Positions 7,735-35,712 of a DNA stretch of 38,895 bases are shown piece by piece. The stretch lies in assembly GCA_030533315.1 (NCBI GenBank), contig JAUNJL010000019.1, forward strand, positions 1 through 38,895. The letters are read 5' to 3'. The translations under genes were made by a program, and so were the position numbers. How positions within the stretch are numbered: position 1 is the stretch's first letter; each line of letters opens with the position of its first letter. The notes beneath the pieces were generated by a model. The model was given only the letters and a program-made list of their open reading frames with translations, had not been told where the DNA came from and did no database searches. The stretch is from Eubacteriales bacterium. Lineage in GTDB: Bacteria; Bacillota_A; Clostridia; Lachnospirales; Lachnospiraceae.

Positions 7735-7748
7735 GGGTAAAAGAGGTT

Positions 7749-7778: not shown

Positions 7779-7789
7779 AGAAAGAAAGA

Positions 7790-7813
7790 CTGTCCGCCGG
7801 GTCTGGCGGACAG
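7790..7813 (+). other. Hairpin in the leader of the lipoprotein gene
   Basis: CTGTCCGCC and GGCGGACAG form a perfect 9-bp stem with a 6-nt loop. No T run follows, and it ends 8 nt before the GATGAGGTGA ribosome site. It could be a glpK processing or 3'-end structure, or a 5' mRNA stabiliser. Confidence 0.5.
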
Positions 7814-7838
7814 GAAGCATGATGAGGTGATAAAAAAT

Positions 7839-8687
7839 ATGAAGAACCAATATGCAGTTTTCGCTTTAACCGCAGCCCTGGCCTTGATGGCTGCCGGCTG
7901 CGGGGAGAAGGCGGCTGCGGTGGCGGATCCCACTCCCACGCCGGCGCCCACCGCTACGCCGGCGCCCACCGCCACCCCCACGCCAAGCCCGATCCCCACA
8001 CCGACGGCGGCTCCCAGGATGATCGGGACGAAGACCTCCGGCGCAAAATCCATCTACATAAGCAACAACACGGACAAGCAGTTCCGTCAGATCTACCTGC
8101 AATCCTCCGACAGCGGGGACTGGGGGCAGAACATGGTGCCTCTGGAGGCTTCGGTGAGGCCCTCGGAGAAGTTCCAGATGTATTATATGCCTCAGGGAGG
8201 AGAGGGCGCCACTTATCATATGCGTCTGGTGGATTCCTCTGGGACCTATTACGAGATCTACAGCATAGAGCTTTCGGATATGACAAGCGCCTCCCTGAAG
8301 CTGGATCAGGAGCAGGGGATCGCTTACCTGACCTATATCAGCGCAGCCACTAAGAACGAGAAGAGCACCAGGGATCATTCTTATTCCGGCTATGACGACG
8401 AGACACAGGAGGATCAGGACTGGGAGATCTATTATTATGAGGATTCCAACAGCGCCGATACCAGCACCGATACCGGTACAGGCGCGGATACCGGTACAGG
8501 AACCGGCGCCGACACCGGTACGGGCACCGATACCGGCACAGGCACGGACACAGGCGTGGATACCGGTGCGGATACCGGTGGAGGCAGTGCGGATGACAGC
8601 ATCATCTATTACGATGACAGCAGCGGAGCTGACGACGGCGGCATGGGTGATGAGATCATTTGGGATGAGAACGGGGACTGGTCATAA
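7839..8687 (+). CDS. Putative lipoprotein with Pro/Thr linker and Asp-Thr-Gly repeat tail
   Basis: I do not recognise a named family. The start at 7839 gives a classic lipoprotein signal: MKNQ, a hydrophobic stretch, then MAAGC with Cys21 as the lipidated residue. Residues about 29-60 are an extended Pro-Thr-Ala linker. A compact middle region (about 65-165) contains IYISNNTDKQFRQIYL and reads like a beta-rich domain found in secreted Clostridia proteins. The last third is acidic and low-complexity, with an 18-bp DNA repeat encoding D-T-G-T-G-T units, and ends in D/G/Y-rich sequence. The ribosome site is AGGTGA. It probably sits on the outer face of the membrane. The role is unknown, and any link to glpK is only positional. 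Confidence 0.8.
   Translation: MKNQYAVFALTAALALMAAGCGEKAAAVADPTPTPAPTATPAPTATPTPSPIPTPTAAPRMIGTKTSGAKSIYISNNTDKQFRQIYLQSSDSGDWGQNMVPLEASVRPSEKFQMYYMPQGGEGATYHMRLVDSSGTYYEIYSIELSDMTSASLKLDQEQGIAYLTYISAATKNEKSTRDHSYSGYDDETQEDQDWEIYYYEDSNSADTSTDTGTGADTGTGTGADTGTGTDTGTGTDTGVDTGADTGGGSADDSIIYYDDSSGADDGGMGDEIIWDENGDWS
8467..8585 (+). repeat. Degenerate 18-bp tandem repeat within the lipoprotein gene
   Basis: Units close to GATACCGGTACAGGCACG recur about six times and encode D-T-G-T-G-T/A. Such repeats are prone to copy-number change by slippage in steps of six residues, which would preserve the frame. Confidence 0.8.
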
Positions 8688-8744
8688 GGGAGCCTGCAAA
8701 CGAACAGGAAGCCTGCACAGATCTCTCAGATGTGAATGAGACAG

Positions 8745-9830
8745 TTAGCCCTTCCTTTTGGAATATTTGATGTAATCCACCACCATCATGGCCAGCTTGA
8801 AGGTGAGTGCATCTTCAAAGGTGCGGATGTCCAGGCCAAATTTTTTCTGAAGCTTCTCAAAACGATAGACCAGCGTGTTGCGGTGTACGTACAGCTGCCG
8901 GGAGGTTTCGGACAGGTTCAGATTGTTTTCAAAGAAGGTGCGGATGGTGATGAGTGCTTCCTCGTCCACGGTGTCCAGGGTCTCCTCCTTGAAGAACTCC
9001 TGAATGAACATTTCGCAGATATCCAGGGGGAGCTGATAAATGAGGCGGCCGATCCCCAGACGGTTGTAGCCGAATACGTTTTTGTCAGAATAAAAGATCT
9101 TTCCCACCTCCAGGGAGGTGCGGGCCTCCTGGTAGGCTCTTGGCAGCAGCCTGATCTCCTCTGCAATGTTGCTGTAGCCCACCCAGGCCGCCGTCATGGC
9201 CTCCGTGTTCAGCATGTCCACCAGCATACAGGCGATGCTGAAAAGATCCTCATAGCCCTCCGTGGGAAGGAGCTCCCGGATAATGATGATCCCGCTGTCG
9301 TCCACGGCGGTGATAAAGTCTTTGGTTCTGGCGGAGAAGATGTTTCGGATGGTGGCCAGGGCGTTCTCGTCCTTGTTTTGCTTTGTTTCCACAAGGAAGA
9401 CGGCTCTTTGGACCGATGTGGTGATGTGCAGCTTTTTGGCGCGGTTGAAGGCCTCCACCTCCCCGTAGCTTCCCAGAAGGAGGTTTTGCATGAAGATATT
9501 TTTGTCGTTTTTCTGGGCATAGGCGGTGAGCAGGCTTTCCACCTGGCAGACGGCCAGCTCCCCAATGGTGGCGGCGGAGGTGCTGGTGCCCCATACCACC
9601 AGGATGTAGGAAAGCTGCTGTCCCTGGCTGACCTTATACAGGCAGCAGGTGGAGTTGGAGATGCAGACGGCGGAGCTTTCCTTAAATTCCTCGATCTTCA
9701 TCAGGGAGGGAAGGCTTTTGCAGCAGGTGGAGAGAAACAGGCTGCCGTCTGTGTGGAGAAGGGCAAAATCGAGCCGGCTGATCCCCTTCCAGTCTTCCAG
9801 GCATTTTTGAAGAATTTGCTGTGTTTTCAT
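8745..9830 (-). CDS. PucR/CdaR-family transcriptional regulator
   Basis: This 361-residue protein has the layout of CdaR/PucR regulators: a variable N-terminal and middle sensing region, then a C-terminal helix-turn-helix of the PucR_2 type (about residues 305-350, LYVHRNTLVYRFEKLQ followed by FEDALTFKLAMM). The family typically activates or represses catabolic genes in response to a small metabolite. The ATG at 9830 has AAAGGACT upstream. It is encoded 115 bp after the sugar ABC ATPase on the same strand but behind a strong hairpin, so it may have its own weak promoter. An obvious possible target is the ABC ATPase gene. The ligand cannot be read from the sequence. Confidence 0.8.
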   Translation of the reverse strand: MKTQQILQKCLEDWKGISRLDFALLHTDGSLFLSTCCKSLPSLMKIEEFKESSAVCISNSTCCLYKVSQGQQLSYILVVWGTSTSAATIGELAVCQVESLLTAYAQKNDKNIFMQNLLLGSYGEVEAFNRAKKLHITTSVQRAVFLVETKQNKDENALATIRNIFSARTKDFITAVDDSGIIIIRELLPTEGYEDLFSIACMLVDMLNTEAMTAAWVGYSNIAEEIRLLPRAYQEARTSLEVGKIFYSDKNVFGYNRLGIGRLIYQLPLDICEMFIQEFFKEETLDTVDEEALITIRTFFENNLNLSETSRQLYVHRNTLVYRFEKLQKKFGLDIRTFEDALTFKLAMMVVDYIKYSKRKG

Positions 9831-9907
9831 CCAAGAGTCCTTTCTAAAAATGATCCGGTCAGCGGGGACGGCTCCTGTCTAAGGACGCCCTGCAAACGGG
9901 AATAAAG

Positions 9908-11058: not shown

Positions 11059-11390
11059 TTCTTCTCCTCCAAATGTTTGATAGTGTATTGGATGCATACT
11101 TTCTTCATCTAGTGTTAGTATAGCGAAAACCGGGAAAAAGGGCTAGAGAAGAATCGTACAAATATTTCCCCGGTTTCTTGTCATTCTGACGAAAACCCTC
11201 AGGCCCTCTTTTGTGCAATCTGCCAAAGCCGTGGGAGGGGGGAAGGCCCATGGCTGCCGGCGCTGCTCAGGGAACAAAAAACGAAAAGCCCCAGGCCCTT
11301 TTCAGAGCCTGGAGCTTCTCAAAACCGCCTTGCCGTCCCGGTTCTCCGGGGGAGGGGCGGGAGATCTGCATCCCAGCCTCTCGTTTGCCG
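11059..11390. other. Intergenic region with ugpC promoter region and a terminator
   Basis: On the minus strand a good -10 TATACT lies at 11122-11117, but its -35 is poor, so ugpC transcription may need an activator. The rest holds the terminator of the upstream binding-protein gene (11275-11316). I see no gene. Confidence 0.5.
11275..11316 (-). terminator. Terminator of the substrate-binding protein gene
   Basis: Read on the minus strand, AGCTCCAGGC pairs with GCCTGGGGCT (10 bp with one G-U pair), followed by TTTTCGTTTTTTG. In the plus direction the same position is a C-A mismatch, which supports minus-strand function. Confidence 0.85.
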
Positions 11391-12404
11391 TCATTTTTTG
11401 GCGGCGGCCCGGGCGTGATCCGTGGTCACCAGGGCGTCGTAGGGAACCTCCCTCGTGAGCTCCCCGGCATCCTTCAGGATGTCTGTGAGAAGGGTAAAGC
11501 TTTCCTCCTGAAAGATCAGGTTTTCCTTCCAGGTGTCCTGCTCATGATATCGTTTGACGATGGTGGTGAGGGTCTCCAGGTCCGTTTCCGGGAACTGGGG
11601 GGCAATGACCTGGGCAATCTCCTCCGGGGTGTGGGCCTGAACGTAGTCCATACCCCTCTGGAGAGCGTTTGTGAAGCCCTGGATGATGTCCGGGTGCTCC
11701 TCCATATAGCTGGTCCTGGCACTGTAGGAGGTGTAGGGCACGTAGCCGGAGTCCACACCCAGGGAGGCGACCACATACCCTGCCCCTTCCAGCTCAAGAG
11801 CGGTGGCCGAAGGCTCAAATTCCACGCTGAAATCCCCCAGCCCGCCGGAAAAGGCTGCCGCTGTGGAGCCAAAATCAATGCTCTGGTCAATGGTCAGGTC
11901 CTTCGCCGGGTCTATTCCCTGTTTTTTCAGGATATATTCAAAAACCATTTCCGGCATTCCACCCTTTCGCCCGCCCAGCACCAGCTTTCCTTTCAGGTCT
12001 TCCCAGGAAAAGTCTGGCATCTCCTCGCGTGCCACCAGGAAGTTTCCCGCCCGCTGGGTCAGCTGGGCGAAGTTTACCACGGGGTCGGTGGCTCCCTCCT
12101 GGTAGGCGTAGATGGAGGCCTCGCCGCCCATAAAGCCGATGTCCGCATCCCCGGAGATCAGGGCCGTCATGACCTTATCGGCTCCAAAGCCGTTCACCAG
12201 TGTGAGGGAAATTCCCTCATCCTCGAAATAGCCCTCCTCAATGGCCACATATTGAGGGGCATAAAAAATAGAATGGGCCACTTCATTGAGAGTGACCTCC
12301 GTCAGCTCTGTTTTCTCCTTCGTCTTTGCGGAAACCGCCATGGGTGTGCAGACAGCCAGAATGACGGCCATTGCCGCTCCCAGAAGTCTTCTTCCTTTTT
12401 TCAT
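11391..12404 (-). CDS. ABC transporter substrate-binding protein (NMT1/SsuA-like)
   Basis: This 337-residue secreted protein resembles the NMT1/THI5 and SsuA/TauA solute-binding family, which captures thiamine precursors, sulfonates, nitrate or similar small molecules outside the membrane. The signal peptide is residues 1 to about 25 (MKKGRRLLG, a hydrophobic core, then VSA before KTK). A cysteine in the core (LAVC) is not a good lipobox. Family features include YVAIEEGYFEDEGI, ALISGDADIGFMG and a late helix with EEIAQVI. The start at 12404 has GGAGGA upstream, and longer in-frame starts do not. No cognate permease or ATPase flanks it, so it is an orphan here, and the ligand is unknown. Confidence 0.82.
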   Translation of the reverse strand: MKKGRRLLGAAMAVILAVCTPMAVSAKTKEKTELTEVTLNEVAHSIFYAPQYVAIEEGYFEDEGISLTLVNGFGADKVMTALISGDADIGFMGGEASIYAYQEGATDPVVNFAQLTQRAGNFLVAREEMPDFSWEDLKGKLVLGGRKGGMPEMVFEYILKKQGIDPAKDLTIDQSIDFGSTAAAFSGGLGDFSVEFEPSATALELEGAGYVVASLGVDSGYVPYTSYSARTSYMEEHPDIIQGFTNALQRGMDYVQAHTPEEIAQVIAPQFPETDLETLTTIVKRYHEQDTWKENLIFQEESFTLLTDILKDAGELTREVPYDALVTTDHARAAAKK

Positions 12405-12633
12405 GCAAATTCCTCCTGCTTTCCTAAAATACCGGCCAAAGACCTGACCGTTCCGTTGGATAAACGGCTGCCAAAAAGCTATGAGGCTCGATTTTCCCGG
12501 CCCTTCTATCATAATATGCGGGGATGGCCGGATGGTTCCGCCTGATGTGGGAACCGGTTATTTTTGCGGGCTGAAAGGGGAAGGGCGGCATGTGGAAAGG
12601 AAGAGGTGAGAGCTTTTTTCTTCCTAAATGAAT

Positions 12634-12751: not shown

Positions 12752-14476
12752 TTATTCGTGCTCTGTGTGGAGCAGAAGATGAGCCTTGTGGGACAGGGGA
12801 TTTTCCATGTATTCTGAATAAAGCTTCTGGATGTCCGGATTCTCGTGGGAAAAGCGGATGGGCATCTCTCTGTCCAGTCTGTAAAGAGTCTTGCCTCTTT
12901 CAAAGGCCAGCTCCTCTCCGTCGTGGATGGGCTGTCCGCCTCCGCCTACGCAGCCGCCGGGACATGCCATCACTTCCACGAAGTCATACTGTACCTCGCC
13001 TCGCTCCATGCTGTCCAGCAGACGTCTTGTGTTTCCAAGGCCGCTGACAACAGCCGCTCTCACACGGATGCCATTGATCGTGAGTTCAGCCTCAGCCAGA
13101 CCGTCGTTGGCGTTGAAGCCGGTGCTTCTCACTGCCTTGAAGGCCTCCGGATCAGGATTCTCACCGGTGATGATGGAGTAAGCTGTACGAAGGGCAGCCT
13201 CCATAACGCCTCCCGTAGCGCCGAAGATGGCACCTGCGCCAGTACCGTCCCGCATGGGCAGATCTCCCTGGATATCCTCCAGGAAATCAACGTTGATATG
13301 TGCGGAGCGCATCATCCTTACCAGCTCTCTGGTGGTGATTACGATGTCTACATCATGGCCGGCATACTCTCCGTAGAAAAGCTCCATCTCTCTTTCGCCC
13401 TTCTTTGCCACGCAAGGCATCACGGACACGGTCACGATGTCCTCCGGCTTCACCTGGATCTTTTCGGCAAAGTAACTCTTCATCACGGCGCCGAACATCT
13501 GCTGCGGAGATTTTGCCGTAGACAGATATTTCACGAGGTGGGGGTACTGAGACTTGATGAAACGTACCCATCCAGGACAGCAGGAGGTAAACATGGGATG
13601 CTCCTTCAGCTCGCCGCCGGTGAAGCGCTGTACAAACTCGTGAGCCTCCTCCATAATGGTCAGGTCGGCGGAGAACACCGTATCAAAGGCGTAGTCCACA
13701 CCCATCTTCTTCAGGGAATCCAGGATCTTGCCTACGGTGGCCTCCTTGGGATCCATGTTCAGCTGCTCAGCCCAGGAGGTACGCACAGCGGGAGCCACCT
13801 GTACCACCACGGTCTTGGTAGGATCCGAGATGGCCTTCCATACCAGCTCCGTATCGTCTCTCTCCCGAAGAGCGCCCACGGGACAGTGAGTGATGCACTG
13901 GCCGCAAAGGGAGCAGGGAGCCTCCTCGATGCGCTGGTGATGGGCCACATTGACCGTGGTACGGGAGCCGGTGCCTTCCACATCCCATATGGAGAGCTGC
14001 TGTACCTTGTCACAGACCTGGATACAACGCATACACTTGATACATTTTGCGGAGTCGCGGATCAGCGGGAAGTCCATGTTCCAGGGGCGCCTCTCCACCT
14101 CTCTCTTGTAGGGGATGTCGATGATGTTCAGGTCATTTGCCAGCTTCTGCAGGCTGCAGTTTCCGCTTCTGGTACAGCTTACGCACATGCAGTCGTGCTG
14201 AGCCAGGATCATCTCCACGGTGGCTCTTCTGTCCTTGCGAACCTTGGGACTATTGGTGTAGAGAACCATGCCCTCCTTGGCCACGTTGTTGCAGGAGGTG
14301 AGCAGTCTGTTCCTGCCCTCCATCTCAACAACACAGACGCGACAGGCTGCGATCTCGTTGATGTCCTTCAAATAACAAAGCTTGGGGATGGTGATCCCAT
14401 TCTGCCTGGCGGCCTCCATGATCGTTGTATTTTCTTTTACGGATATCTTTTTTCCGTCGATTGTAAGATTTACCAT
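12752..14476 (-). CDS. hydA: [FeFe] hydrogenase catalytic subunit (group A, HndD/HydA type)
   Basis: This enzyme makes or oxidises H2 in the cytosol. It has 574 residues. In order it has: a [2Fe-2S] domain (Cys34, 45, 48, 62), a His-Cys [4Fe-4S] site (His94, Cys98, 101, 107), two ferredoxin clusters (Cys145/148/151/155 and Cys188/191/194/198), then the H-cluster domain with FTSCCPGW (297-304), MPCVAKKGERE (353-363) and EVMACPGGCVGGGGQP, and a C-terminal small-subunit-like tail ending HKAHLLLH. All H-cluster cysteines are present. The start overlaps the stop of the upstream flavoprotein gene by 7 nt, so the two should be made together. The partner implies NAD(P)H as electron donor or acceptor. 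The maturases HydE, HydF and HydG are not in the window. Confidence 0.95.
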   Translation of the reverse strand: MVNLTIDGKKISVKENTTIMEAARQNGITIPKLCYLKDINEIAACRVCVVEMEGRNRLLTSCNNVAKEGMVLYTNSPKVRKDRRATVEMILAQHDCMCVSCTRSGNCSLQKLANDLNIIDIPYKREVERRPWNMDFPLIRDSAKCIKCMRCIQVCDKVQQLSIWDVEGTGSRTTVNVAHHQRIEEAPCSLCGQCITHCPVGALRERDDTELVWKAISDPTKTVVVQVAPAVRTSWAEQLNMDPKEATVGKILDSLKKMGVDYAFDTVFSADLTIMEEAHEFVQRFTGGELKEHPMFTSCCPGWVRFIKSQYPHLVKYLSTAKSPQQMFGAVMKSYFAEKIQVKPEDIVTVSVMPCVAKKGEREMELFYGEYAGHDVDIVITTRELVRMMRSAHINVDFLEDIQGDLPMRDGTGAGAIFGATGGVMEAALRTAYSIITGENPDPEAFKAVRSTGFNANDGLAEAELTINGIRVRAAVVSGLGNTRRLLDSMERGEVQYDFVEVMACPGGCVGGGGQPIHDGEELAFERGKTLYRLDREMPIRFSHENPDIQKLYSEYMENPLSHKAHLLLHTEHE

Positions 14477-16302
14477 AACTTTTCCCGTCCTCCTTTGAAT
14501 ATTCCGTATCCGAAACGGTCACAGCGAAGACATCTGCTGGCCTCCTGCTTAGCTTCCTTTTCGGTCATGCAGTTTTCCACGGCCTCAAAGTCGCATACGC
14601 GCTCACAGCCTTCACGTTCAGTCATGTTGACTCTTCCACACGGTGAACGGTCGGAATGATTGGGGGCTGGAACCTCCACGTCACAGGAGATCACATGGTG
14701 GTAACCAAGATATTCGTCAATGTTTGCGGCAACAACCTTAGAGGCGGCGATGGCCTTGATAACGGTGGCCGGACCGCTGGCGCAGTCTCCCCCTGCGAAA
14801 ACGCCTGGCATATTCTCGAATGCGCAGGTGCTGGTCGTCTGGAGCTTGCCTCTTACAACGGGGATGCCTACCTCTTCAAAATGGCGTGTCTCAATGTTCT
14901 GGCCGATGGCTATGATCAAAACATCGCAGGGGATGTAAATATTATCCTCTCCTGAGGAGCGGGTGCCGGCCCGTCCGTCCTTGATGGCGCTGATCATCTG
15001 CGGGGTCACGTAGATCCCTTTCACGTGGTTGTTCTCGTCCACATGGATGGAGGCGGGAGACTTCAGGGTCTGCATCTCGATGCCCTCTGCCATAGCTGCC
15101 TCGATCTCCTCCGGAAGGGCGGTCATGTCTGCGATCCGGCGGCGGTATACGATGCTGACCTTCTTCGCACCAAGGCGCTTTGCGGTACGCACGGCATCCA
15201 TGGAAACGTTTCCGCCTCCGATGACAGCCACCTCCTTGCCGGTCAGATCCATGGGCGTACCCATTCCCACATCCTGAAGGAACTGTACGGCGGAGATTAC
15301 GCCCTCTGCGTCCTCCCCTTCCATGCCCAGCTTCTTATCCGTGCTGGCGCCCACGGCGATCAGAACGGCGTCATACTCCTTGCGGAGCTGCTGCAGGGTA
15401 ACGTCCTGTCCCACCTTTATGCCGTGTCTCACCTCTACTCCTGTCTTCAGGATGCACTCGATGTCGTCATCCAGGCGATCCTTGGGAAGACGGTAATTGG
15501 GGATACCATAGCGGAGCATACCGCCCAGCTTAGGCAGCATCTCATATACTACGGTCTGATGTCCCATCAGCTGAAGGAAGTATGCGGCGCTCAGTCCTCC
15601 GGGGCCGCCGCCGATGATGGCGATGCGCTTGCCGGTAGAAGGAGCACAGGCGGGTGGCGGAACCTCTCCCGCATGATCCGCTGCCATACGCTTCAGACCG
15701 CGGATGTTCACGGAATCGTCCACCATGTTTCTGCGGCACCTGGCCTCACAGGGATGCTCACAGATAAAGCCGCAGGTGGTGGGGAAGGGATTGTCCTTGC
15801 GGATCAGGCGCACGGCGTCTGCGTACCGTCCCTCTCCCACAAGGGTGATATAGCCAGGGATATCCACGCTGGCTGGACATAGGGCCACGCAGGGCACGGG
15901 CTGATGATATGTACAGGTACAGCGGCCATGCTCCACATGCTCGATATAGTCGTCCCTGTATCCGGTGATCCCCTTGTAAACCATGCTTGCCGCCTCGTAA
16001 CCGATGGCACAGTCAGCGGCTTCCATGATGGAAAGGGCAGTCTCCTCGATCAGGTCCAAGGTCTTCATGGTGGCCTTCCCATCCAGCACGTCGGTGATGA
16101 AATGGTTCAGCTGTCCAAGACCGATTCGGCAGGGAGTACATTTTCCGCAGGTCTGTGCGTGGCACAACTCAAGGAATGCCCTTGCCATGTCTACAGGACA
16201 GAGTCCTGGGGGGCTGGACTCGATTCTTCTTTCCAGGTCCTTGTAAAGCCCCTCCATTACAATCCTGGCTCTGTTGGGAGATATGATCTCTAGTCTACTC
16301 AT
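14470..16302 (-). CDS. Fusion of NuoF-type Fe-S domain and GltD-like NAD(P)H flavoprotein
   Basis: This 610-residue protein probably carries electrons between NAD(P)H and the hydrogenase encoded next to it. Residues about 40-105 match the C-terminal [4Fe-4S] domain of NuoF/HydB (CGKCTPC at 52-58 plus Cys98). The FMN/NADH-binding part of NuoF is missing. Residues about 125-210 hold a Cys-rich dihydropyrimidine dehydrogenase-like [4Fe-4S] region (Cys128 to Cys189). Then comes a glutamate synthase small-subunit-like part: FAD loop IIGGGPGGLSAA (about 229-240), NAD(P) loop VIGGGNVSMDA (360-370) followed by YRRR (387-390, suggestive of NADPH), and GGDCASGPAT near the C-terminus. The ATG follows AGGAAGG. 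It is the first gene of a two-gene operon. Confidence 0.88.
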   Translation of the reverse strand: MSRLEIISPNRARIVMEGLYKDLERRIESSPPGLCPVDMARAFLELCHAQTCGKCTPCRIGLGQLNHFITDVLDGKATMKTLDLIEETALSIMEAADCAIGYEAASMVYKGITGYRDDYIEHVEHGRCTCTYHQPVPCVALCPASVDIPGYITLVGEGRYADAVRLIRKDNPFPTTCGFICEHPCEARCRRNMVDDSVNIRGLKRMAADHAGEVPPPACAPSTGKRIAIIGGGPGGLSAAYFLQLMGHQTVVYEMLPKLGGMLRYGIPNYRLPKDRLDDDIECILKTGVEVRHGIKVGQDVTLQQLRKEYDAVLIAVGASTDKKLGMEGEDAEGVISAVQFLQDVGMGTPMDLTGKEVAVIGGGNVSMDAVRTAKRLGAKKVSIVYRRRIADMTALPEEIEAAMAEGIEMQTLKSPASIHVDENNHVKGIYVTPQMISAIKDGRAGTRSSGEDNIYIPCDVLIIAIGQNIETRHFEEVGIPVVRGKLQTTSTCAFENMPGVFAGGDCASGPATVIKAIAASKVVAANIDEYLGYHHVISCDVEVPAPNHSDRSPCGRVNMTEREGCERVCDFEAVENCMTEKEAKQEASRCLRCDRFGYGIFKGGREKLW

Positions 16303-29508: not shown

Positions 29509-30252
29509 CTAGAAGATCACACGGATATTCTGACTTTCCAGATCGGCTTTTACAGAAACAGGAATCTGTTCATCAGTGATCACAGTTTTTACCTTAGTTT
29601 TTAAATTTAATGGAACAATTCCTCGTTTGAAAAATTTGTCGCTTTCTGTTAATACGACCACTTGTTCAGCCTGACCAGCCATATCACGAACAGCCTGTGC
29701 TCTCATTTGGTCACGGTTTGTGAAACCGATGGAAGACATATAACCATCCGTTCCGATAAAATATAAATCTACGAAAAAATTTTCAGCGCATTGGCGTACC
29801 ATGGGTCCGACCATAACCTGTGCGTCCTGCTGATAAATACCTCCTAAAAGGATAATCTGAAAATTTGATTTGCTCCGGATGTATTCGGCAATAAAAGCGC
29901 TGTTCGTAATGATCGTAAGCTCTTTTTTTAAAGCAACTAACGTATCGGCTAATAAGGCACAGCAACTGCCGCTTTCGATCATAATGGTACTGCCGTCGGA
30001 TACAAGTTCCGCTGCTTTTTGGGCAATTTTTTTCTTTTCCTCATAATGATAGGCGATTCTTCCGTTGATATCATCCAGGCTGCACAAAACAGCAAATCCA
30101 TGTTCGCGTTTTATGATTCCCCTGTGTTCCAAGGCGTCCAGATCTTTTCGGATCGTGACTTGAGAGACGCCCAGCTTTTCCGAAAGTGTAGAAACCTCTA
30201 TTTTATTCTCTTGTGTAAGTAACTCCAAAATCTTATATGAGCGATTTTTCAT
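29509..30252 (-). CDS. DeoR-family transcriptional repressor of the GRE cluster
   Basis: This 247-residue regulator has the standard DeoR layout. An N-terminal winged helix (about 5-57, with LSEKLGVSQVTIRKDLDALE) is followed by a sugar-phosphate-binding domain with EEKKKIAQKAAELV, the IESGSCC phosphate-loop region, and IGTDGYMSSIGFT. Such proteins usually repress sugar-catabolic operons until a phosphorylated intermediate binds. Translation starts at 30252 with AAGGAAG upstream. It is encoded downstream of the GRE activase on the same strand but has its own promoter. One copy of the TTAYGAAYGAAAT element sits just upstream of that promoter and four more lie at the GRE promoter, strongly suggesting what it controls. 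Confidence 0.92.
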   Translation of the reverse strand: MKNRSYKILELLTQENKIEVSTLSEKLGVSQVTIRKDLDALEHRGIIKREHGFAVLCSLDDINGRIAYHYEEKKKIAQKAAELVSDGSTIMIESGSCCALLADTLVALKKELTIITNSAFIAEYIRSKSNFQIILLGGIYQQDAQVMVGPMVRQCAENFFVDLYFIGTDGYMSSIGFTNRDQMRAQAVRDMAGQAEQVVVLTESDKFFKRGIVPLNLKTKVKTVITDEQIPVSVKADLESQNIRVIF

Positions 30253-30290
30253 AATCTGCTTCCTTGTAGCTTATTGTTTTCATATCATAC

Positions 30291-30319
30291 AGCATAACAC
30301 AAGAAGTTAGTCATTTCAA
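30291..30319 (-). promoter_or_regulatory. Promoter of the DeoR gene
   Basis: On the minus strand, TTGAAA (30319-30314), a 17-nt spacer and TATGCT (30296-30291). The DeoR-cluster repeat at 30327-30339 is directly upstream. Confidence 0.55.
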
Positions 30320-30326
30320 TAATTGC

Positions 30327-30339
30327 TTACGAATGAAAC
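30327..30339 (+). promoter_or_regulatory. DeoR operator candidate, copy E
   Basis: TTACGAATGAAAC matches the element repeated at the GRE promoter (12 of 13 bases identical to copy A). It lies just upstream of the DeoR promoter, so it is probably an autoregulation site. Confidence 0.55.
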
Positions 30340-30363
30340 AAAATAATCTTCTTAATGATTTCC

Positions 30364-31278
30364 TTAGAAAAAGGCATTTATATGCGCATTTAAGAAGACT
30401 TGTATATATTCCTGTAAATCCTCTCTGTGTAAAGAAGGAACGTTTTCAAACTCGTAAGAATAGTTCAGAAGATGGTACTTATTCTCACCAAATTGATGGA
30501 AAGGAAGGAGCTGACAACGATTAGCTCCGACAGAATGTAAAGCTTCTGCTAATTTTGCTGCATCTTCTAAAGAATTATTGAAACCTGGAATGACTGGGAT
30601 ACGGGGGAGAACCTCTTTTCCTGCATCTATGGAGTATTTCATATTTGCAAGGGGAAGTTTATTTGTAACGCCGGTGCCGGCTTTGTGAGTTTTGGGATTC
30701 CAATGTTTCATATCAAACAAAATATAGTCTACATATTTTATAACTTTACGAAAAAGTTCAGGCTTTGCAAAACCTGTGGTTTCACAGCAGGTATGAAGTC
30801 CTTGCCTTTTTGAGGCTAGGAGCAGTTCTATAGCAAATTCAGGCTGAGACAGGATTTCGCCTCCCGAAAGTGTGATTCCTCCGCCGCTTTCTTCATAAAA
30901 GACAAGATCCTGCGTGACAATGTCCATCACCTCTTTTATTGTTTTTGAATACCCGTCATTTTCTAATGCTTTTTGAGGACATTCTGAAACACATCTTTGA
31001 CAGCTGCTGCATTTGAGCGGATCAAAGATGATACAGTCCTTTTTAATGGAAACAGCATTGGAGGGACATATCTCAATGCAGTGATGACAGTGAATACATT
31101 TTTTCTGGTTCCATAATATCTGAGGCTTTGCAAGCTGGCTTTCAGGGTTTGCACACCAGCGGCAGCGCAGAGGACAGCCTTTAAAAAAAACTACAGTTCG
31201 GATACCAGGCCCGTCATTGACACTGAATTTTTGAATGTTAAAGATAACGCCAGCTTTATTTTCATCTGCGGCTTTCAT
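30364..31278 (-). CDS. Glycyl radical enzyme activating protein (radical SAM)
   Basis: This 304-residue enzyme uses S-adenosylmethionine to generate the glycyl radical on its partner, here the GRE encoded divergently. The radical-SAM cysteines are Cys35, Cys39 and Cys42 (GCPLRCRWC). A two-cluster ferredoxin insert follows, with CIHCHHCIEICP and CSSCQRCVSECP (about 61-112). GGGITLSGGE is the SAM-binding GGE motif. The extra ferredoxin domain is typical of activases of dehydratase/lyase-type GREs, not of classical pyruvate formate-lyase. GAAGGAGA precedes the ATG. It shares a 193-bp divergent promoter region with the GRE gene. Confidence 0.93.
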   Translation of the reverse strand: MKAADENKAGVIFNIQKFSVNDGPGIRTVVFFKGCPLRCRWCANPESQLAKPQILWNQKKCIHCHHCIEICPSNAVSIKKDCIIFDPLKCSSCQRCVSECPQKALENDGYSKTIKEVMDIVTQDLVFYEESGGGITLSGGEILSQPEFAIELLLASKRQGLHTCCETTGFAKPELFRKVIKYVDYILFDMKHWNPKTHKAGTGVTNKLPLANMKYSIDAGKEVLPRIPVIPGFNNSLEDAAKLAEALHSVGANRCQLLPFHQFGENKYHLLNYSYEFENVPSLHREDLQEYIQVFLNAHINAFF

Positions 31279-31315
31279 GGTAAAATCTCCTTCTGTTAAA
31301 TGATAATATTCTCAT

Positions 31316-31343
31316 ATTGTAACATATTTTCCTGATTTTTCAA
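31316..31343 (-). promoter_or_regulatory. Promoter of the GRE activase gene
   Basis: On the minus strand, TTGAAA (31343-31338), a 16-nt spacer and TACAAT (31321-31316) with TGT before it (extended -10). Repeat copy A (31351-31363) abuts its upstream side. Confidence 0.7.
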
Positions 31344-31350
31344 CAGAAAC

Positions 31351-31456
31351 TTACGAATGAAATTAAATATATTTTTGATAAAAACATATTGACAATATAT
31401 GAATGAAAATGTAGAATAAAATTACAAACGAAGTAATTAAATATTATGAACGAAAT
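31351..31456 (+). promoter_or_regulatory. Four direct repeats (copies A-D) in the GRE/activase intergenic region
   Basis: TTACGAATGAAAT (31351-31363), ATATGAATGAAAA (31397-31409), TTACAAACGAAGT (31422-31434) and TTATGAACGAAAT (31444-31456) share the pattern TTAYGAAYGAAAT. Copy B lies in the spacer of the GRE promoter, C at its start point, D next to the ribosome site, and A between the two divergent promoters. This is the arrangement expected for the DeoR-family repressor encoded at 29509-30252. Confidence 0.65.
31389..31417 (+). promoter_or_regulatory. Promoter of the GRE operon
   Basis: TTGACA (31389-31394), a 17-nt spacer and TAGAAT (31412-31417). Transcription should begin near 31424 within repeat copy C. 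Confidence 0.8.
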
Positions 31457-31471
31457 AAAAGAGGGAGGACT

Positions 31472-33886
31472 ATGGAAAACAAATTACATTTTGGGGCTTT
31501 GACAAGCAGAATGAAAGCGTTTCGTGAAGAGGTTCTGGATGAGAAACCTTATATCGATGCTGAAAGAGCTATTTTAGCTACAGAAGCGTACAAGGAGAAC
31601 CACCATCAGCCAAGGGTTATGGTGAGAGCCATGATGTTGAAAAAAATTCTGGAGGGTATGAGCATCTATATCGAGGATAAGACGTTGATCGTTGGAAATC
31701 AGGCGACCAAAAATGTGAATGCCCCTATTTTTCCGGAGTATACCCTGGAATTTGTATTGAATGAGCTGGATCTGTTTGAAAAACGAGATGGCGATGTATT
31801 TTATATTACTGAGGAAACAAAGCAGCAGCTCCGTGAGATTGCTCCATTTTGGGACAATAATAACCTTCGGGCAAGAGGGGAAGCGCTTCTTCCAGAAGAG
31901 GTCAGCGTGTTTATGGAGACCGGTGTGTTTGGGATGGAAGGAAAGCTTAATGCCGGAGACGCACATCTGGCTGTCAATTATGAGAAAGTCTTGTCCGAAG
32001 GTTTGAAGGGGTATGAAGAACGGGTGAAGAGCCTGATGGCTGCTCTGGATTTTACAATCCCGGAGTCGATTGATAAGAATGTTTTTTATAAGGCGGTTTT
32101 GATCGTTATTGACGCAGTCCATACGTTTGCGCTTCGCTATAGCCGTTTGGCGTCGGAGATGGCCGAAAAAGAAACGGATCAGAAGAGAAAAGAAGAACTT
32201 ATGGAAATCAGCAGGATCTGCGCAAAGGTTCCATATGAACCGGCGGGCTCCTTTAAAGAAGCGATACAGTCCGTATGGTTTATCCAGTTGATCCTCCAGA
32301 TTGAATCCAACGGCCACTCTTTAAGCTACGGACGTTTTGATCAATATATGTATCCATATTACAAAAGCGATCTGGAAAAAGGGATGATTGGAAAAGAGGG
32401 GGCATTGGAGCTGCTTACCTGTTTATGGATCAAAACGCTGACAGTCAATAAGGTAAGATCACAGGCGCATACTTTAAGTTCTGCTGGCTCTCCTATGTAT
32501 CAAAATGTGACTATTGGGGGGCAGACAACGGATAAAAAGGATGCGGTCAATCCACTGAGCTTTTTGGTGCTGCAGTCCGTAGCACAGACAAGACTCACAC
32601 AGCCAAACCTTACAGTGCGCTATCATAAAAATCTGAATAAAGAATTTTTTGATGAATGTATTGAGGTTATGAAACTGGGGTTTGGTATGCCGGCGCTGAA
32701 CAATGATGAAATCATCATTCCTTCCTTTATCAACTGGGGAGTAAAAGAAGAGGACGCATATAACTACAGTGCCATCGGATGTGTAGAAACGGCAGTGCCC
32801 GGAAAATGGGGGTATCGTTGTACGGGAATGTCCTATATCAATTTCCCGAGAGTGCTGCTCTGCGCTATGAATAACGGCGTAGATTTAACCAGCGGAAAAA
32901 GATTCACAAAAGGCTATGGATATTTCAAAGATATGGAGACCTATGAAGATCTGTTAGTGGCATGGGATAAAACAGTAAGGGAAATGACAAGATACAGCGT
33001 GATCGTAGAGAATGCGATTGATAAGGCTTCGGAGCGGGATGTGCCGGATGTTTTGTGTTCAGCGCTTACAGACGACTGTATAGGACGAGGTAAGACCATT
33101 AAAGAAGGCGGCGCAGTGTACGATTTTATTTCCGGTCTGCAGGTAGGCATCGCAAATATGGCGGATTCCCTGGCGGCAATTAAAAAGCTGGTCTATGAAG
33201 AAAAGAGAATTACAAGGGAACAGCTTTGGGAGGCCATTTTAGATGATTTCCAGTCCCCGGAGAATAAAAAGATCCAGGAGCTCCTGATTGAAGAAGCGCC
33301 TAAGTATGGGAACGATAATGATGAGGTAGATCAACTGGTTGTAGAAGCCTATGACTCCTACTTGGATGAAATTAAAAAGTATCCGAACACCCGGTATCAG
33401 AGGGGGCCGATTGGCGGGATTCGTTATGGCGGAACATCTTCGATCAGCGCCAATGTAGGGCAGGGGATGGGAACGGTTGCAACACCGGACGGAAGAAATG
33501 CTTTTGAGCCTTTAGCCGAGGGATGCAGCCCAGCGCATAATGCGGATAAAAACGGGCCTACTGCCGTGTTTAAAAGTGTTTCTAAACTTCGTACAGAAAA
33601 AATCACCGGTGGTGTGCTTCTGAATCAGAAGATGACTCCGCAGATGCTGGCCACAGAAGAAAATAAGCAAAAACTGGAAATGCTTATAAGGGCATTTTTT
33701 AACAGGCTCCATGGCTACCATGTACAGTATAATATTGTATCAAGAGAAACCTTGATTGATGCACAGAAGCATCCGGAAAATCATAAAGATCTGATTGTCC
33801 GCGTGGCTGGATACAGCGCTTTTTTTAATGTGCTTTCCAAAAAAACACAGGATGATATTATCGGAAGAACGGAACAGACACTTTAA
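31472..33886 (+). CDS. Glycyl radical enzyme, YbiW/PflD-like (candidate anhydrohexitol-6-phosphate lyase)
   Basis: This 804-residue radical enzyme has the PFL-like N-terminal domain, the thiyl cysteine Cys437 with Glu439 in GCVETAVPGKWGYRCTG, and the C-terminal glycyl radical loop RVAGYSAFF with Gly780. The Cys-Val-Glu arrangement is that of the dehydratase/C-O-lyase GREs, not the adjacent Cys pair of pyruvate formate-lyase. The GCVETAVPGKWGYRCTGMS segment recalls E. coli YbiW. YbiW and PflD have been reported to open the ring of 1,5-anhydroglucitol- or 1,5-anhydromannitol-6-phosphate, giving 1-deoxyfructose-6-phosphate. The neighbouring aldolase and kinase genes fit that pathway. GAGGGAGGA precedes the ATG. 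The exact substrate is inferred. Confidence 0.88.
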   Translation: MENKLHFGALTSRMKAFREEVLDEKPYIDAERAILATEAYKENHHQPRVMVRAMMLKKILEGMSIYIEDKTLIVGNQATKNVNAPIFPEYTLEFVLNELDLFEKRDGDVFYITEETKQQLREIAPFWDNNNLRARGEALLPEEVSVFMETGVFGMEGKLNAGDAHLAVNYEKVLSEGLKGYEERVKSLMAALDFTIPESIDKNVFYKAVLIVIDAVHTFALRYSRLASEMAEKETDQKRKEELMEISRICAKVPYEPAGSFKEAIQSVWFIQLILQIESNGHSLSYGRFDQYMYPYYKSDLEKGMIGKEGALELLTCLWIKTLTVNKVRSQAHTLSSAGSPMYQNVTIGGQTTDKKDAVNPLSFLVLQSVAQTRLTQPNLTVRYHKNLNKEFFDECIEVMKLGFGMPALNNDEIIIPSFINWGVKEEDAYNYSAIGCVETAVPGKWGYRCTGMSYINFPRVLLCAMNNGVDLTSGKRFTKGYGYFKDMETYEDLLVAWDKTVREMTRYSVIVENAIDKASERDVPDVLCSALTDDCIGRGKTIKEGGAVYDFISGLQVGIANMADSLAAIKKLVYEEKRITREQLWEAILDDFQSPENKKIQELLIEEAPKYGNDNDEVDQLVVEAYDSYLDEIKKYPNTRYQRGPIGGIRYGGTSSISANVGQGMGTVATPDGRNAFEPLAEGCSPAHNADKNGPTAVFKSVSKLRTEKITGGVLLNQKMTPQMLATEENKQKLEMLIRAFFNRLHGYHVQYNIVSRETLIDAQKHPENHKDLIVRVAGYSAFFNVLSKKTQDDIIGRTEQTL

Positions 33887-33950
33887 AAGGGTAGGGTTGG
33901 TGGAACTTAGATTTCACTGAATATTGATATTGGGGTAGGAGGACATAGGT

Positions 33951-34628
33951 ATGAAGTTAATTATTGATGACGCACACATCGACCTGATTCAGAGAGTATA
34001 TGAATTTTATCCCGTAGATGGGGTGACAACAAACCCGTCCATTCTGGCTAAAAGCGGCAGAAATCCGTATGAGGTTTTGAAAGAAATCCGAGAATTTATA
34101 GGGGAGGAAGCTGAACTACATGTACAGGCAGTATCCCGGAATGCTGCCGGAATGGTGGAAGAAGCAGACCGTATTGTAAAGGAGCTAGGAGAAAATACAT
34201 ATGTGAAGATCCCGTCTATTCCAGAAGGATTCAAGGCTATGAAAATGTTGAGGGAAAAGGGCCTTATGATCACGGCGACAGCTATTTATACGCCGATGCA
34301 GGCATTTTTGGCAGCGAAGTGCGGTGCGGCTTATGCAGCTCCGTATATTAACCGGATTGATAATATGGGGTACAACGGTATCCAGGTAGCAAAGAACATC
34401 CACGACATTTTTAAAAACAACGGGTTAAAAACAGAGGTACTGGCAGCAAGTTTTAAAAATTCACAGCAGCTTTTGGAACTCTGTGAATACGGGATTGGTG
34501 CGTCTACGGTAGCCCCGGATGTGATCGAAGGATTGGTGAAGAACCAGGCAATTACCGGTGCAATTGAAGATTTTATCAGTGATTTTGAATGCCTGACCGG
34601 AGAAGGAAAAAACATGAGTAATTGTTAA
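33951..34628 (+). CDS. fsa: Fructose-6-phosphate aldolase-like transaldolase
   Basis: This 225-residue class I aldolase of the FSA/TalC branch cleaves 1-deoxyfructose-6-phosphate or fructose-6-phosphate to glyceraldehyde-3-phosphate and hydroxyacetone or dihydroxyacetone. Family features: DGVTTNPSILAKSG (23-36), Schiff-base Lys86 in TYVKIPS, TATAIYTPMQA (about 107-118) and APYINRIDN. The length matches FSA (about 220), not full transaldolase. GGAGGA precedes the ATG. It lies 64 bp after the GRE gene in one operon. In E. coli, fsaA is next to ybiW and fsaB next to pflD, so the GRE-FSA pairing is conserved. This is strong context for the proposed route. Confidence 0.9.
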   Translation: MKLIIDDAHIDLIQRVYEFYPVDGVTTNPSILAKSGRNPYEVLKEIREFIGEEAELHVQAVSRNAAGMVEEADRIVKELGENTYVKIPSIPEGFKAMKMLREKGLMITATAIYTPMQAFLAAKCGAAYAAPYINRIDNMGYNGIQVAKNIHDIFKNNGLKTEVLAASFKNSQQLLELCEYGIGASTVAPDVIEGLVKNQAITGAIEDFISDFECLTGEGKNMSNC

Positions 34629-34652
34629 AACGTGTAGGGGAGAGTTATACAG

Positions 34653-35546
34653 ATGAAGGTTCTTGTTGTGGACATTGGGGGTACCTATATTAAATATGCC
34701 TGTATGAAAGAAGATATGGAAATTATAGGCCGTGGAAAAATAAAAACACCAACGGAAAACAGAGAGGCTCTGATCGAAGCCATAGGAGGGATTTATGATG
34801 AGATGGAGGATGTGGATGGGATCGCCATATCCATGCCGGGAATTATAGATTCTGAGAACGGTTATTGCTCCATGGGCGGTGCACTGCGTTATAATGATGA
34901 TTTTTATTTAAGACGCAGCTTATATCAGCGTTGTCCTGTAAAAATTTATATGGAGAATGACGCAAAATGTGCAGCAATGGCAGAAGCCGCTGTTGGCAGC
35001 CTGAAGGATGTAGAAGATGGATTTGTCTTGATCTTTGGAACCATGATCGGCGGTGGCTTTATCAAGGATCATAAGCTGCATCGCGGCAAGCATTTTTCTG
35101 CGGGAGAAGTTTCGTATATTAACACGAAGGGGGATGGAATCCCCGGATCTGATGTCGTGTGGGGGAATCGCTGCGGTACACCGAGGCTTTGTAAAATGTA
35201 TGCGGAGAAGAAGAACCTGAAACCTGAAGAAGTCGATGGGATCAAAGTCTTTGAAGGTGTTCATAATCAGGAAGCAGAAGCCATCGAATGCCTGCAGAAA
35301 TATACGAGGGAAATCGCTGTACAGATTTTTAATTTGCAGATGGCTTTAGACCCGGAACGTTTTGCTATCGGTGGAGGTATCTCCGCACAGCCGCTCTTTA
35401 TTGAATATATAAAAAATAATTTAAAGACCTTGTATGCAGAATGTCCCTATCATGTTCCTCATGCAGAGGTAGTAAGCTGTAAATTCCAAAACGATGCTAA
35501 CCTGATTGGGGCGTTACAATGTTTCTTAGCTTATGCGAAGGGATGA
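34653..35546 (+). CDS. ROK-family sugar kinase
   Basis: This 297-residue cytosolic kinase belongs to the ROK family. It has the phosphate loop VVDIGGTYIKYA (about 4-15), the catalytic Asp in YMENDAKCAAMAE, the adenosine loop GTMIGGGFI, and a C-terminal AIGGGIS. The CxCGxxGCxE zinc motif of glucokinase/NagC-type ROK proteins is absent: the region reads AGEVSYINTKGDG. There is no N-terminal DNA-binding domain, so it is an enzyme, not a repressor. As third gene of the GRE operon (24 bp after fsa, GGGGAG upstream) it most likely phosphorylates the hexitol-like substrate, for example 1,5-anhydroglucitol, at O6. The specificity is an inference from context. Confidence 0.88.
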   Translation: MKVLVVDIGGTYIKYACMKEDMEIIGRGKIKTPTENREALIEAIGGIYDEMEDVDGIAISMPGIIDSENGYCSMGGALRYNDDFYLRRSLYQRCPVKIYMENDAKCAAMAEAAVGSLKDVEDGFVLIFGTMIGGGFIKDHKLHRGKHFSAGEVSYINTKGDGIPGSDVVWGNRCGTPRLCKMYAEKKNLKPEEVDGIKVFEGVHNQEAEAIECLQKYTREIAVQIFNLQMALDPERFAIGGGISAQPLFIEYIKNNLKTLYAECPYHVPHAEVVSCKFQNDANLIGALQCFLAYAKG

Positions 35547-35712
35547 CATTAGGAAGAAGGATAGGGGAGCAAAAAAAGGAATAGCAAGGAAATTTAAAGC
35601 GAATACCTTTGCAGCGGCGGAGATTGTTGTGACTTTTCTGATGATTATGTTTCTGAAATTTGATGGGGATATTAGCGAAAAAGAGAATGAAAAACAAGAG
35701 GCAGAGGCTTAA
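35533..35712 (+). CDS. Possible 59-aa membrane peptide at the end of the GRE operon
   Basis: The ATG at 35533 lies 14 nt inside the ROK gene, in another frame, and runs to TAA at 35710. The predicted peptide has a very basic start (MRRDDIRKKDRGAKK), one hydrophobic segment (about 26-41, FAAAEIVVTFLMIMF) and an acidic tail (EKENEKQEAEA), the layout of a single-pass membrane peptide. There is no good ribosome site, so coupling to ROK translation would be needed. It could be a real small protein, the end of a decayed membrane-protein gene, or chance. Confidence 0.4.
   Translation: MRRDDIRKKDRGAKKGIARKFKANTFAAAEIVVTFLMIMFLKFDGDISEKENEKQEAEA

What the first reader, a model, noticed from the sequence alone, without database searches (positions are those of the whole stretch)
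29509..35546. Self-contained candidate 'anhydroglycolysis' cluster with its own kinase
Seen: a glycyl radical enzyme with GCVET and Gly780, its activase, an FSA-type aldolase with Lys86, a ROK kinase and a DeoR repressor lie together. Known: E. coli YbiW and PflD are encoded near fsaA and fsaB, and have been reported to convert 1,5-anhydroglucitol-6-phosphate or 1,5-anhydromannitol-6-phosphate to 1-deoxyfructose-6-phosphate, cleaved by FSA to glyceraldehyde-3-phosphate and hydroxyacetone. Inference: here a dedicated ROK kinase replaces PTS phosphorylation, so a free anhydrohexitol imported by another carrier would be the substrate. A Gram-positive gut version with a specific kinase would be a distinct variant.
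Basis: partly seen in the sequence, partly recalled or inferred. Interest (0 to 1): 0.82.

Follow-up and report, generated by a model that had tools for sequence, protein, structure and literature searches.

The report
Kinase-fed radical pathway for anhydroglucitol
A gut bacterium carries a small gene cluster that looks like the oxygen-sensitive radical pathway known from E. coli for eating the blood-sugar marker 1,5-anhydroglucitol, but with its own sugar kinase in place of the usual uptake-and-phosphorylation system.

Summary
The GRE is YbiW-type (50% identical to E. coli YbiW, 37% to PflD), so most likely a 1,5-anhydroglucitol-6-phosphate lyase. The kinase is no chance neighbour. It belongs to a distinct ROK clade that lies in the GRE cluster in 12 of the 14 genomes found to hold both. 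In the other two it carries the operator of the GRE promoter. A double-operator pattern in 30 GRE-holding genomes hit 12 times: 11 GRE promoters and one unlinked kinase locus; reversed control 0. Related clusters use PTS instead; none of 7 kinase loci showed a PTS by the four query types. 'A dedicated kinase replaces PTS' is well supported by comparison; that its substrate is free anhydroglucitol is inference. 'Self-contained' is too strong: no transporter or hydroxyacetone reductase lies in the cluster, and the genome is not held. In 50 of 79 loci neither kinase nor queried PTS was seen nearby (20 of these are cut short), and kinase remnants show it can be lost. Verdict: new variant of a published pathway.

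The parts
29509..30252 (-). DeoR-family repressor (247 aa), presumed regulator of the cluster
   Evidence: DeoRC 139 bits and HTH_DeoR 57 bits; 73% identical paralogue beside the unlinked kinase of genome G001
30327..30338 (+). DeoR-type operator copy TTACGAATGAAA between DeoR and activase
   Evidence: 3 matches with up to 1 mismatch in the 38.9-kb window, 0.33 expected, all three in this cluster
30364..31278 (-). radical-SAM GRE-activating enzyme (304 aa)
   Evidence: TIGR02494 340 bits, cut-off 174; Radical_SAM plus Fer4 domains
31351..31362 (+). operator copy TTACGAATGAAA upstream of the GRE promoter
   Evidence: double-operator arrangement at GRE promoters of 11 of 30 other genomes
31389..31417 (+). 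sigma-70-like promoter TTGACA-17-TAGAAT of the GRE operon, between two operator copies
   Evidence: 11 of 12 consensus positions, the best of 17 found in 6.6 kb; 14.5 such sites are expected by chance, so this is a consensus match only
31444..31455 (+). operator copy TTATGAACGAAA just upstream of the GRE
   Evidence: one mismatch; starts 93 bp after the copy at 31351
31472..33886 (+). YbiW-type glycyl radical enzyme (804 aa), proposed 1,5-anhydroglucitol-6-phosphate lyase; Cys437, Glu439, Gly780
   Evidence: YbiW 8id7/8yjn 858 bits against glycerol dehydratase 608 and PflD 475; 49.9% to YbiW, 37.2% to PflD; tree
33951..34628 (+). FSA/TalC-type aldolase (225 aa), Lys86
   Evidence: TAL_FSA 174 bits; 10 of the 11 FsaA positions checked are kept, among them Asp6, Thr26, Asn28, Gln59, Lys85, Tyr131, Arg134 and Ser166; the eleventh is Leu107 to Thr (choice of positions recalled)
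34653..35546 (+). ROK kinase (297 aa), proposed ATP:1,5-anhydroglucitol 6-phosphotransferase; GTMIGG and AGEVSY motifs, no zinc motif
   Evidence: ROK 135 bits; nearest solved chains 4htl and 2gup by sequence and fold; clade motif

Best explanation
The cluster is a DeoR-controlled operon for anaerobic use of 1,5-anhydroglucitol (AG) in a gut Lachnospiraceae-like bacterium. Free AG enters by a carrier outside the cluster (unknown). The ROK kinase phosphorylates its O6 with ATP, doing the job that PTS does in E. coli. The activase installs a radical on Gly780; Cys437 then starts ring-opening C-O cleavage of AG-6-phosphate by the YbiW-type GRE to 1-deoxyfructose-6-phosphate. The FSA aldolase splits this to glyceraldehyde-3-phosphate and hydroxyacetone, which an unlinked reductase would dispose of. 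DeoR represses from paired operators around the GRE promoter until a sugar phosphate builds up. Shown here: gene content, YbiW-type GRE, catalytic residues, kinase-GRE linkage, shared operators. Inferred: every substrate, the sign of regulation and its effector, the transport step.
For: GRE type: PDB sequence search puts YbiW (858 bits) far above glycerol dehydratase (608) and PflD (475); at 148 columns that tell YbiW kin from PflD kin the window agrees with YbiW at 82, PflD at 23, neither at 43, and with YbiW at 13 of 14 around the catalytic Cys; it lies on the YbiW side of a 100-support branch. Published role of YbiW: passages of PMC12441222 citing Ma et al. 2024. Aldolase residues kept. Kinase linkage: full-length orthologues near the GRE in 7 of 80 loci and in the window; in 30 of the 80 loci's genomes searched whole, 8 hold an orthologue at 59-77% and the other 22 have no full-length match above 45%; in 272 genomes of one family 8 have the kinase, 45 the GRE, 6 both, Fisher p 3e-4, or 5 of 7 and p 1.5e-3 without the centre genome. 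Regulon: operator pairs in 30 genomes hit 11 GRE promoters and G001's unlinked kinase locus, reversed control 0; G574's unlinked kinase has the same 12-mer as its GRE promoter. PTS alternative in kin: lactose-type EIIC in 21 and mannose-type in 1 of 79 loci, in none of the 7 with the ROK. Kinase kind: nearest the beta-glucoside kinase model and chain, enzymes that act on O6 of glucosides with a blocked C1 (recalled); hexokinases phosphorylate AG (PMC12965863, one passage).
Against: No activity was or could be measured. Of 79 loci, 50 have neither ROK nor the queried lactose- or mannose-type PTS within 6.5 kb; 20 of these are cut short by a contig end and two have a beta-glucoside-type EIIC in range. 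So an adjacent kinase is not needed for the GRE to persist. Kinase remnants beside an intact GRE in L008 and L062 show loss. Three genomes have the kinase but no detected GRE (G440, G503, G972), though the gene lies within 265 bp of a contig end in all three; G972's kinase has no operator nearby and lacks the GTM motif. 18 of 30 GRE-holding genomes do not match the strict double-operator pattern, and G574's kinase matches only the relaxed motif, not the strict one within one mismatch. No transporter was found with the operator in five genomes. Ligand contacts of the GRE could not be read from coordinates; the comparison is by aligned stretches, and 23 of 148 discriminating columns match PflD.
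Confidence: 0.6

Rival explanations
1. The GRE-FSA pathway is right, but the substrate is another anhydrohexitol (for example 1,5-anhydromannitol or an anhydro-allitol or -galactitol) and the kinase serves that sugar.
For: Related GREs at 55-65% identity sit with other partners: allose-type ABC transporter and allulose-6-phosphate 3-epimerase in L128, an Mgl-like ABC transporter in L162, so the wider family may have spread to other epimers. 23 of 148 discriminating columns match PflD.
Against: The window GRE is far closer to YbiW than to PflD; the kinase of its clade is nearest to beta-glucoside kinases, and the PTS of Streptococcus kin is of lactose/cellobiose type, which fits the gluco configuration.
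Confidence: 0.15
2. AG still enters by an unlinked PTS; the ROK kinase serves AG that appears inside the cell free, from hydrolysis of AG-containing glycosides or gallotannins, from 1,5-anhydrofructose reduction, or from dephosphorylation.
For: Many kin keep the GRE with no kinase seen beside it, and some have lost it, as for an optional second entry. No co-regulated transporter was found in five genomes.
Against: The kinase has the operator of the GRE even when unlinked, so it is a regular part of the regulon where present; no glycosidase or anhydrofructose reductase is among the five genes; the upstream neighbour is a 4-alpha-glucanotransferase.
Confidence: 0.13
3. The kinase phosphorylates an ordinary beta-glucoside, cellobiose or glucose, and is only co-regulated with the GRE operon because both sugars occur together.
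For: Nearest named relatives are beta-glucoside kinases, and G001 has a beta-glucoside-type EIIC beside it. Kinase and GRE identities are poorly correlated when G385 is kept (Spearman 0.25).
Against: Score to the BglK model is 150 against a cut-off of 550; the clade has its own motif; kinase and GRE diverge together once G385, whose GRE and activase look replaced, is left out (Spearman 0.73 over 36 pairs; pairs are not independent).
Confidence: 0.1
4. The GRE is a pyruvate formate-lyase or diol/glycerol dehydratase, as automatic annotation names such proteins.
For: The only NCBIfam model passed, TIGR01774 (931 bits), is named formate C-acetyltransferase/glycerol dehydratase family.
Against: Bits to glycerol dehydratase are 608 against 858 for YbiW, to PFL 141; an FSA-type aldolase lies within 6.5 kb of the GRE in 55 of 80 loci.
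Confidence: 0.02

Closest known systems
E. coli ybiW-ybiY / fsaA locus (anhydroglycolysis; Ma et al. 2024 JACS, doi 10.1021/jacs.4c07718, not held and unread; known here through passages of PMC12441222 and recall)
   Same: YbiW-type GRE, activase and FSA aldolase clustered
   Different: No kinase and no DeoR in the 12 kb seen; phosphorylation there is by PTS. Window GRE is 50% identical.
Streptococcus operon DeoR - SorC-type regulator - lactose/cellobiose-type PTS IIA/IIB/IIC - GRE - FSA - GldA-type Fe-ADH, activase divergent (for example L044)
   Same: GRE 72%, DeoR 46%, activase 44%, aldolase of the same family
   Different: PTS in place of ROK; has a GldA-type Fe-ADH, which the window lacks
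E. coli pflD-pflC-frwBCD (anhydromannitol-6-phosphate branch)
   Same: GRE fold, activase, glycyl radical
   Different: GRE 37%, fructose-like PTS partners
Beta-glucoside kinase BglK (ROK family; PDB 4htl, whose entry title says putative N-acetylmannosamine kinase; also 2gup)
   Same: ROK fold, DxGGT, catalytic Asp; ExGY instead of ExGH and no zinc motif in 4htl and 2gup either
   Different: About 30% identity, 150 bits against a BglK cut-off of 550; clade motif GTMIGG/GEVSY

Membership tests
YbiW-type GRE (1,5-anhydroglucitol-6-phosphate lyase) | PFL-like plus glycyl radical domains, catalytic Cys and radical Gly | tested here: met
   PF02901 703 bits, PF01228 121 bits; Cys437, Gly780
YbiW-type GRE (1,5-anhydroglucitol-6-phosphate lyase) | closer to YbiW than to PflD or other characterised GREs | tested here: met
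   858 against 608 (next named other function) and 475 bits; tree with PflD kin, quick method
YbiW-type GRE (1,5-anhydroglucitol-6-phosphate lyase) | active-site stretches shared with YbiW and not with PflD | tested here: met
   13 of 14 columns at 430-458, 82 of 148 overall; ligand contacts themselves not read
YbiW-type GRE (1,5-anhydroglucitol-6-phosphate lyase) | converts AG6P to 1-deoxyfructose-6-phosphate | not testable with these tools
   needs purified, activated enzyme
Anhydroglycolysis operon with PTS | PTS components beside the GRE | tested here: not met
   none found in the window cluster or the flanks scanned; the genome is not held
Anhydroglycolysis operon with PTS | FSA-type aldolase | tested here: met
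   active-site residues
Anhydroglycolysis operon with PTS | GldA-type dehydrogenase for hydroxyacetone | tested here: not met
   no GldA match near the window GRE; GldA match within 6.5 kb of the GRE in 20 of 80 loci
ROK kinase family (PF00480) | Pfam ROK match, DxGGT phosphate loop, catalytic Asp | tested here: met
   135 bits, cut-off 22.9; DIGGT and END motifs
ROK kinase family (PF00480) | ExGH with Cys-rich zinc motif (glucokinase-type ROK; recalled feature) | tested here: not met
   E-V-S-Y and no CxCGxxGC
Beta-glucoside kinase BglK (NF042998) | NCBIfam equivalog cut-off | tested here: not met
   149.9 bits against 550

The most novel reading that the evidence does not exclude
Gut Firmicutes hold a PTS-free branch of anhydroglycolysis with a dedicated anhydroglucitol kinase, a new ROK specificity (GTMIGG/GEVSY clade), in one DeoR regulon with the GRE. 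In at least one genome (G001) it is fed by a stand-alone beta-glucoside-type EIIC without the phosphorylating IIB and IIA domains, working as a plain carrier. A second, independent PTS-free design (L128: allose-type ABC transporter, glucokinase-type ROK, GRE, allulose-6-phosphate 3-epimerase, FSA) extends the chemistry to an allo-configured anhydrohexitol.
Probability: 0.3. Interest if true: 0.72.

Novelty: new variant of a known kind. Interest (0 to 1): 0.56.

Why it matters
1,5-Anhydroglucitol is a clinical glycaemia marker, and its 6-phosphate is the toxic metabolite behind two inherited neutropenias (PMC12441222: start of abstract, reference titles). Gut bacteria that use an ATP-dependent kinase instead of PTS for it would be a separate, genetically recognisable population of consumers. 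The kinase, if it discriminates AG from glucose, would also be a candidate reagent for AG assays. The kinase motif and the operator give a direct way to annotate clusters whose GRE is named formate acetyltransferase by family models.

Tried and rejected
EIIC remnant behind the window's ROK: the frame at 35542-35712 ends like the G001 EIIC C-terminus and was matched by only 13 and 5 of 3000 shuffles, but its score of 42 is inside the range of 60 random 1.2-kb pieces of the window (median 36, 90% 45). Rejected as evidence.

EIIC as a general part of the regulon: the G385 orthologue (56%) has no operator within two mismatches in its intergenic stretch and is unlinked. Of 34 genomes only G001 and G385 have a match above 42%. 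So the EIIC carrier rests on G001 alone.

Transporter hunt by exact operator in five genomes: 15 sites, 7 at GRE or kinase promoters, 8 elsewhere; the reversed control pattern gave 33. In the roughly 3-kb pieces around the 8 I saw no sugar transporter by eye from ORF starts; no family search was run on them.

ROK label on the GRE tree: patchy, 8 changes, as low in 106 of 500 shuffles, so it is not a clade marker and no single origin is claimed. The tree used the quick method with long branches flagged.

Operators by the strict motif: none near G574's kinase or G972's. G574 was accepted only after relaxing the motif, and because the identical 12-mer is in its own GRE promoter.

The kinase model (pLDDT 78, under 50 at 149-173, which holds the GEVSY loop) was used only to name nearest folds.

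Papers: Ma et al. 2024 is not held and was not read. PMC12441222: passages and two parts of its reference list. PMC12507026: one passage, in its reference list. PMC12965863: one passage. All others only as search listings. The word anhydroglycolysis is in no held paper; I use it from the finding and recall. Searches for a kinase route listed none, but most subscription papers are missing, so absence from print is not claimed.
Full report
OBSERVATION. The five genes are present at the coordinates given and of the types named. Cys437, Glu439, Gly780 and the aldolase's Lys86 are as stated. DeoR and activase are divergent from GRE-FSA-ROK. The GRE-FSA gap is 64 bp and the FSA-ROK gap 24 bp. The flanking genes that were scanned are unrelated: 4-alpha-glucanotransferase upstream, DnaJ downstream; short ORFs between were not scanned. 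No PTS or sugar transporter was found next to the cluster; the nearest gene with a sugar-transport type domain is a MalK-like ATPase about 18 kb away. The window ends 3.3 kb after the ROK, and no genome is held for it, so a carrier outside the window cannot be excluded.

WHICH GRE. Against all PDB sequences the best hits are 6xs4 (873 bits) and E. coli YbiW (858), then glycerol dehydratase (608), with PflD at 475. Identity is 49.9% to YbiW and 37.2% to PflD. I took the 148 alignment columns in which YbiW and three Orbaceae relatives agree and differ from three PflD-type enzymes that agree. The window has the YbiW letter in 82, the PflD letter in 23 and another in 43; in the stretch around the catalytic Cys it is YbiW-like in 13 of 14. 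In a tree of 94 GREs the window lies among 90 rows parted from PflD and three kin by a branch with 100 support, with the E. coli YbiW group next to the mainly Firmicutes clade (quick method, long branches flagged). YbiW turns 1,5-anhydroglucitol-6-phosphate into 1-deoxyfructose-6-phosphate and PflD does the same for the manno epimer, according to passages of PMC12441222 citing Ma et al. 2024. The original is not held; the further steps (FSA cleavage to glyceraldehyde-3-phosphate and hydroxyacetone, reduction by GldA) are recalled. The window aldolase is 35% identical to FsaA and keeps 10 of the 11 FsaA positions checked; the exception is Leu107 to Thr.

HOW KIN PHOSPHORYLATE. Of 79 with a near-complete GRE (L075, a fragment, was dropped), 7 have a full-length orthologue of the window ROK within 6.5 kb, 21 a lactose/cellobiose-type EIIC (one of them, L031, at only 32% identity), 1 a mannose-type PTS and 50 neither. 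Of the 50, 20 have a contig end inside the range, and L020 and L063 have a beta-glucoside-type EIIC in range, so 50 is an upper bound. None of the 7 ROK loci matched a lactose-, mannose-, fructose- or beta-glucoside-type EIIC query. L008 and L062 have ROK fragments (residues 209-292 at 62%, 137-218 at 50%). An FSA-type aldolase is within 6.5 kb in 55 of 80 loci and a GldA-type dehydrogenase in 20 of 80: L008, L009, L015 and 17 Streptococcus loci.

IS THE KINASE PART OF IT. Whole-genome searches of 30 of these loci's genomes show a gap: 8 hold an orthologue at 59-77% identity, and the other 22 have no full-length match above 45%. In searches of whole groups, 9 further genomes have the kinase: 6 hold a YbiW-type GRE, 5 of them in one cluster. 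The other 3 (G440, G503, G972) show no GRE, and the kinase lies within 265 bp of a contig end in each. Over all 17 kinase-positive genomes, 14 have the GRE and 12 of these 14 have both in one cluster (in L015 with GldA between); 8 of the 17 were reached through the GRE, so that part is biased. Group by group: 272 genomes of G015's family, kinase 8, GRE 45, both 6 (Fisher p 3e-4; without the centre 5 of 7, p 1.5e-3); 299 of G001's family, kinase 2, GRE 10, both 2, centre included; 98 relatives of G004, kinase 2; 98 of G025, kinase 1; 391 of G001's class, kinase 2. Kinase and GRE identities rise and fall together (Spearman 0.73 without G385, 0.25 with it; pairs not independent).

SHARED OPERATOR. 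The motif TTACGAAYRAAA occurs 3 times in the window with up to one mismatch, all in the cluster's intergenic stretches, against 0.33 expected. Two copies whose starts are 93 bp apart flank a TTGACA-17-TAGAAT promoter. Within 250 bp upstream of the GRE it is exact in 29 of 77 sequences (76 loci and the window; 4 loci with too little upstream DNA dropped) and within one mismatch in 62 of 77, against 3 and 14 of 329 AT-matched background pieces. In genome G001 the kinase is on another contig than the GRE: a DeoR paralogue (73% to the window's), the ROK and a stand-alone EIIC share a locus, and 4 of the 8 operator matches in its 16 kb (0.44 expected) lie between DeoR and ROK. A pattern of two operators with 65-90 bp between them, searched in 30 GRE-holding genomes, gave 12 hits in 12 genomes: 11 directly upstream of the GRE and 1 at that kinase locus; 18 genomes had none, and the reversed control gave none in all 30 (positions compared). 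In G574, also split, the strict motif is absent near the kinase, but the 12-mer TTTCAAATGAAA stands once in 12.2 kb, directly before the kinase, and the same 12-mer is in its activase-GRE intergenic stretch. This is the strongest evidence that the kinase serves the GRE pathway.

WHAT THE KINASE IS. Best named model is beta-glucoside kinase BglK for the window and for each of four orthologues, at 150-175 bits, far under that model's cut-off of 550. Nearest solved chains are 4htl and 2gup by sequence and fold. All 10 orthologues aligned (window, seven loci, G001, G385) have GTMIGG instead of GTGIGG and [AS]GE[VI]SY instead of ExGH, and no zinc motif; AGEVSY is in 112 of the 120 listed of 1776 homologues. 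From recall, glucokinase-type ROK enzymes use the His of ExGH and a second Glu near the anomeric hydroxyl, so their loss would suit a sugar without that hydroxyl; this is inference, and beta-glucoside kinases share it. Hexokinases phosphorylate AG promiscuously (PMC12965863, one passage), so the reaction is chemically ordinary.

TRANSPORT. Not found for the window. G001's EIIC matches only positions 91-452 of the 618-residue beta-glucoside PTS model, so it lacks IIB and IIA. It is behind the kinase and under the operator. An orthologue in G385 is unlinked and has no operator. A carrier uncoupled from phosphorylation is possible but rests on one genome.

VERDICT. It overreaches in 'self-contained'. 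The pathway is published; the kinase-fed form with its regulon is a new variant as far as the sources I could see go (searches; Ma et al. unread).

Noticed in passing
L128:443-12634 (genome G168): A GRE 58% identical to the window's lies in a cluster with an allose-type ABC transporter (substrate-binding protein above the NCBIfam cut-off, ATPase and permease under theirs), a glucokinase-type ROK unrelated to the window's clade, activase, D-allulose-6-phosphate 3-epimerase (above cut-off) and FSA. This suggests a PTS-free route for an allo-configured anhydrohexitol: GRE to 1-deoxyallulose-6-phosphate, epimerase to 1-deoxyfructose-6-phosphate, FSA.
   Followed up: partly
L130:9105-15408 (genome G385): Same five-gene order as the window with ROK 80%, FSA 86% and DeoR 76% identical, but GRE only 65% and activase 55%: GRE and its activase appear to have been replaced as a pair.
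   Followed up: partly
L162:642-11112 (genome G045): A 60% identical GRE lies near an ABC transporter whose ATPase is most like MglA (666 bits, under the cut-off of 828); its other neighbours were read by eye only.
   Followed up: no
L052:9980-19832 and L050:1590-12397: Each carries a YbiW-type and a PflD-type GRE within about 10 kb; in L052 a FrwC-like EIIC (48%) precedes the PflD-type one.
   Followed up: no
L019:4359-12415 (Atopobium minutum): YbiW-type GRE with mannose/sorbose-family PTS EIIAB-C-D and no FSA match within 6.5 kb.
   Followed up: no
window 12752-16302: [FeFe]-hydrogenase large subunit next to a NuoF-like flavin/Fe-S protein, as in electron-bifurcating hydrogenases (the comparison is recalled).
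   Followed up: no
window 7686-9905 and 11211-12545: Three long ORFs without a Pfam match at 1e-10, on either side of a MalK-like ATPase and after an FGGY sugar kinase.
   Followed up: no
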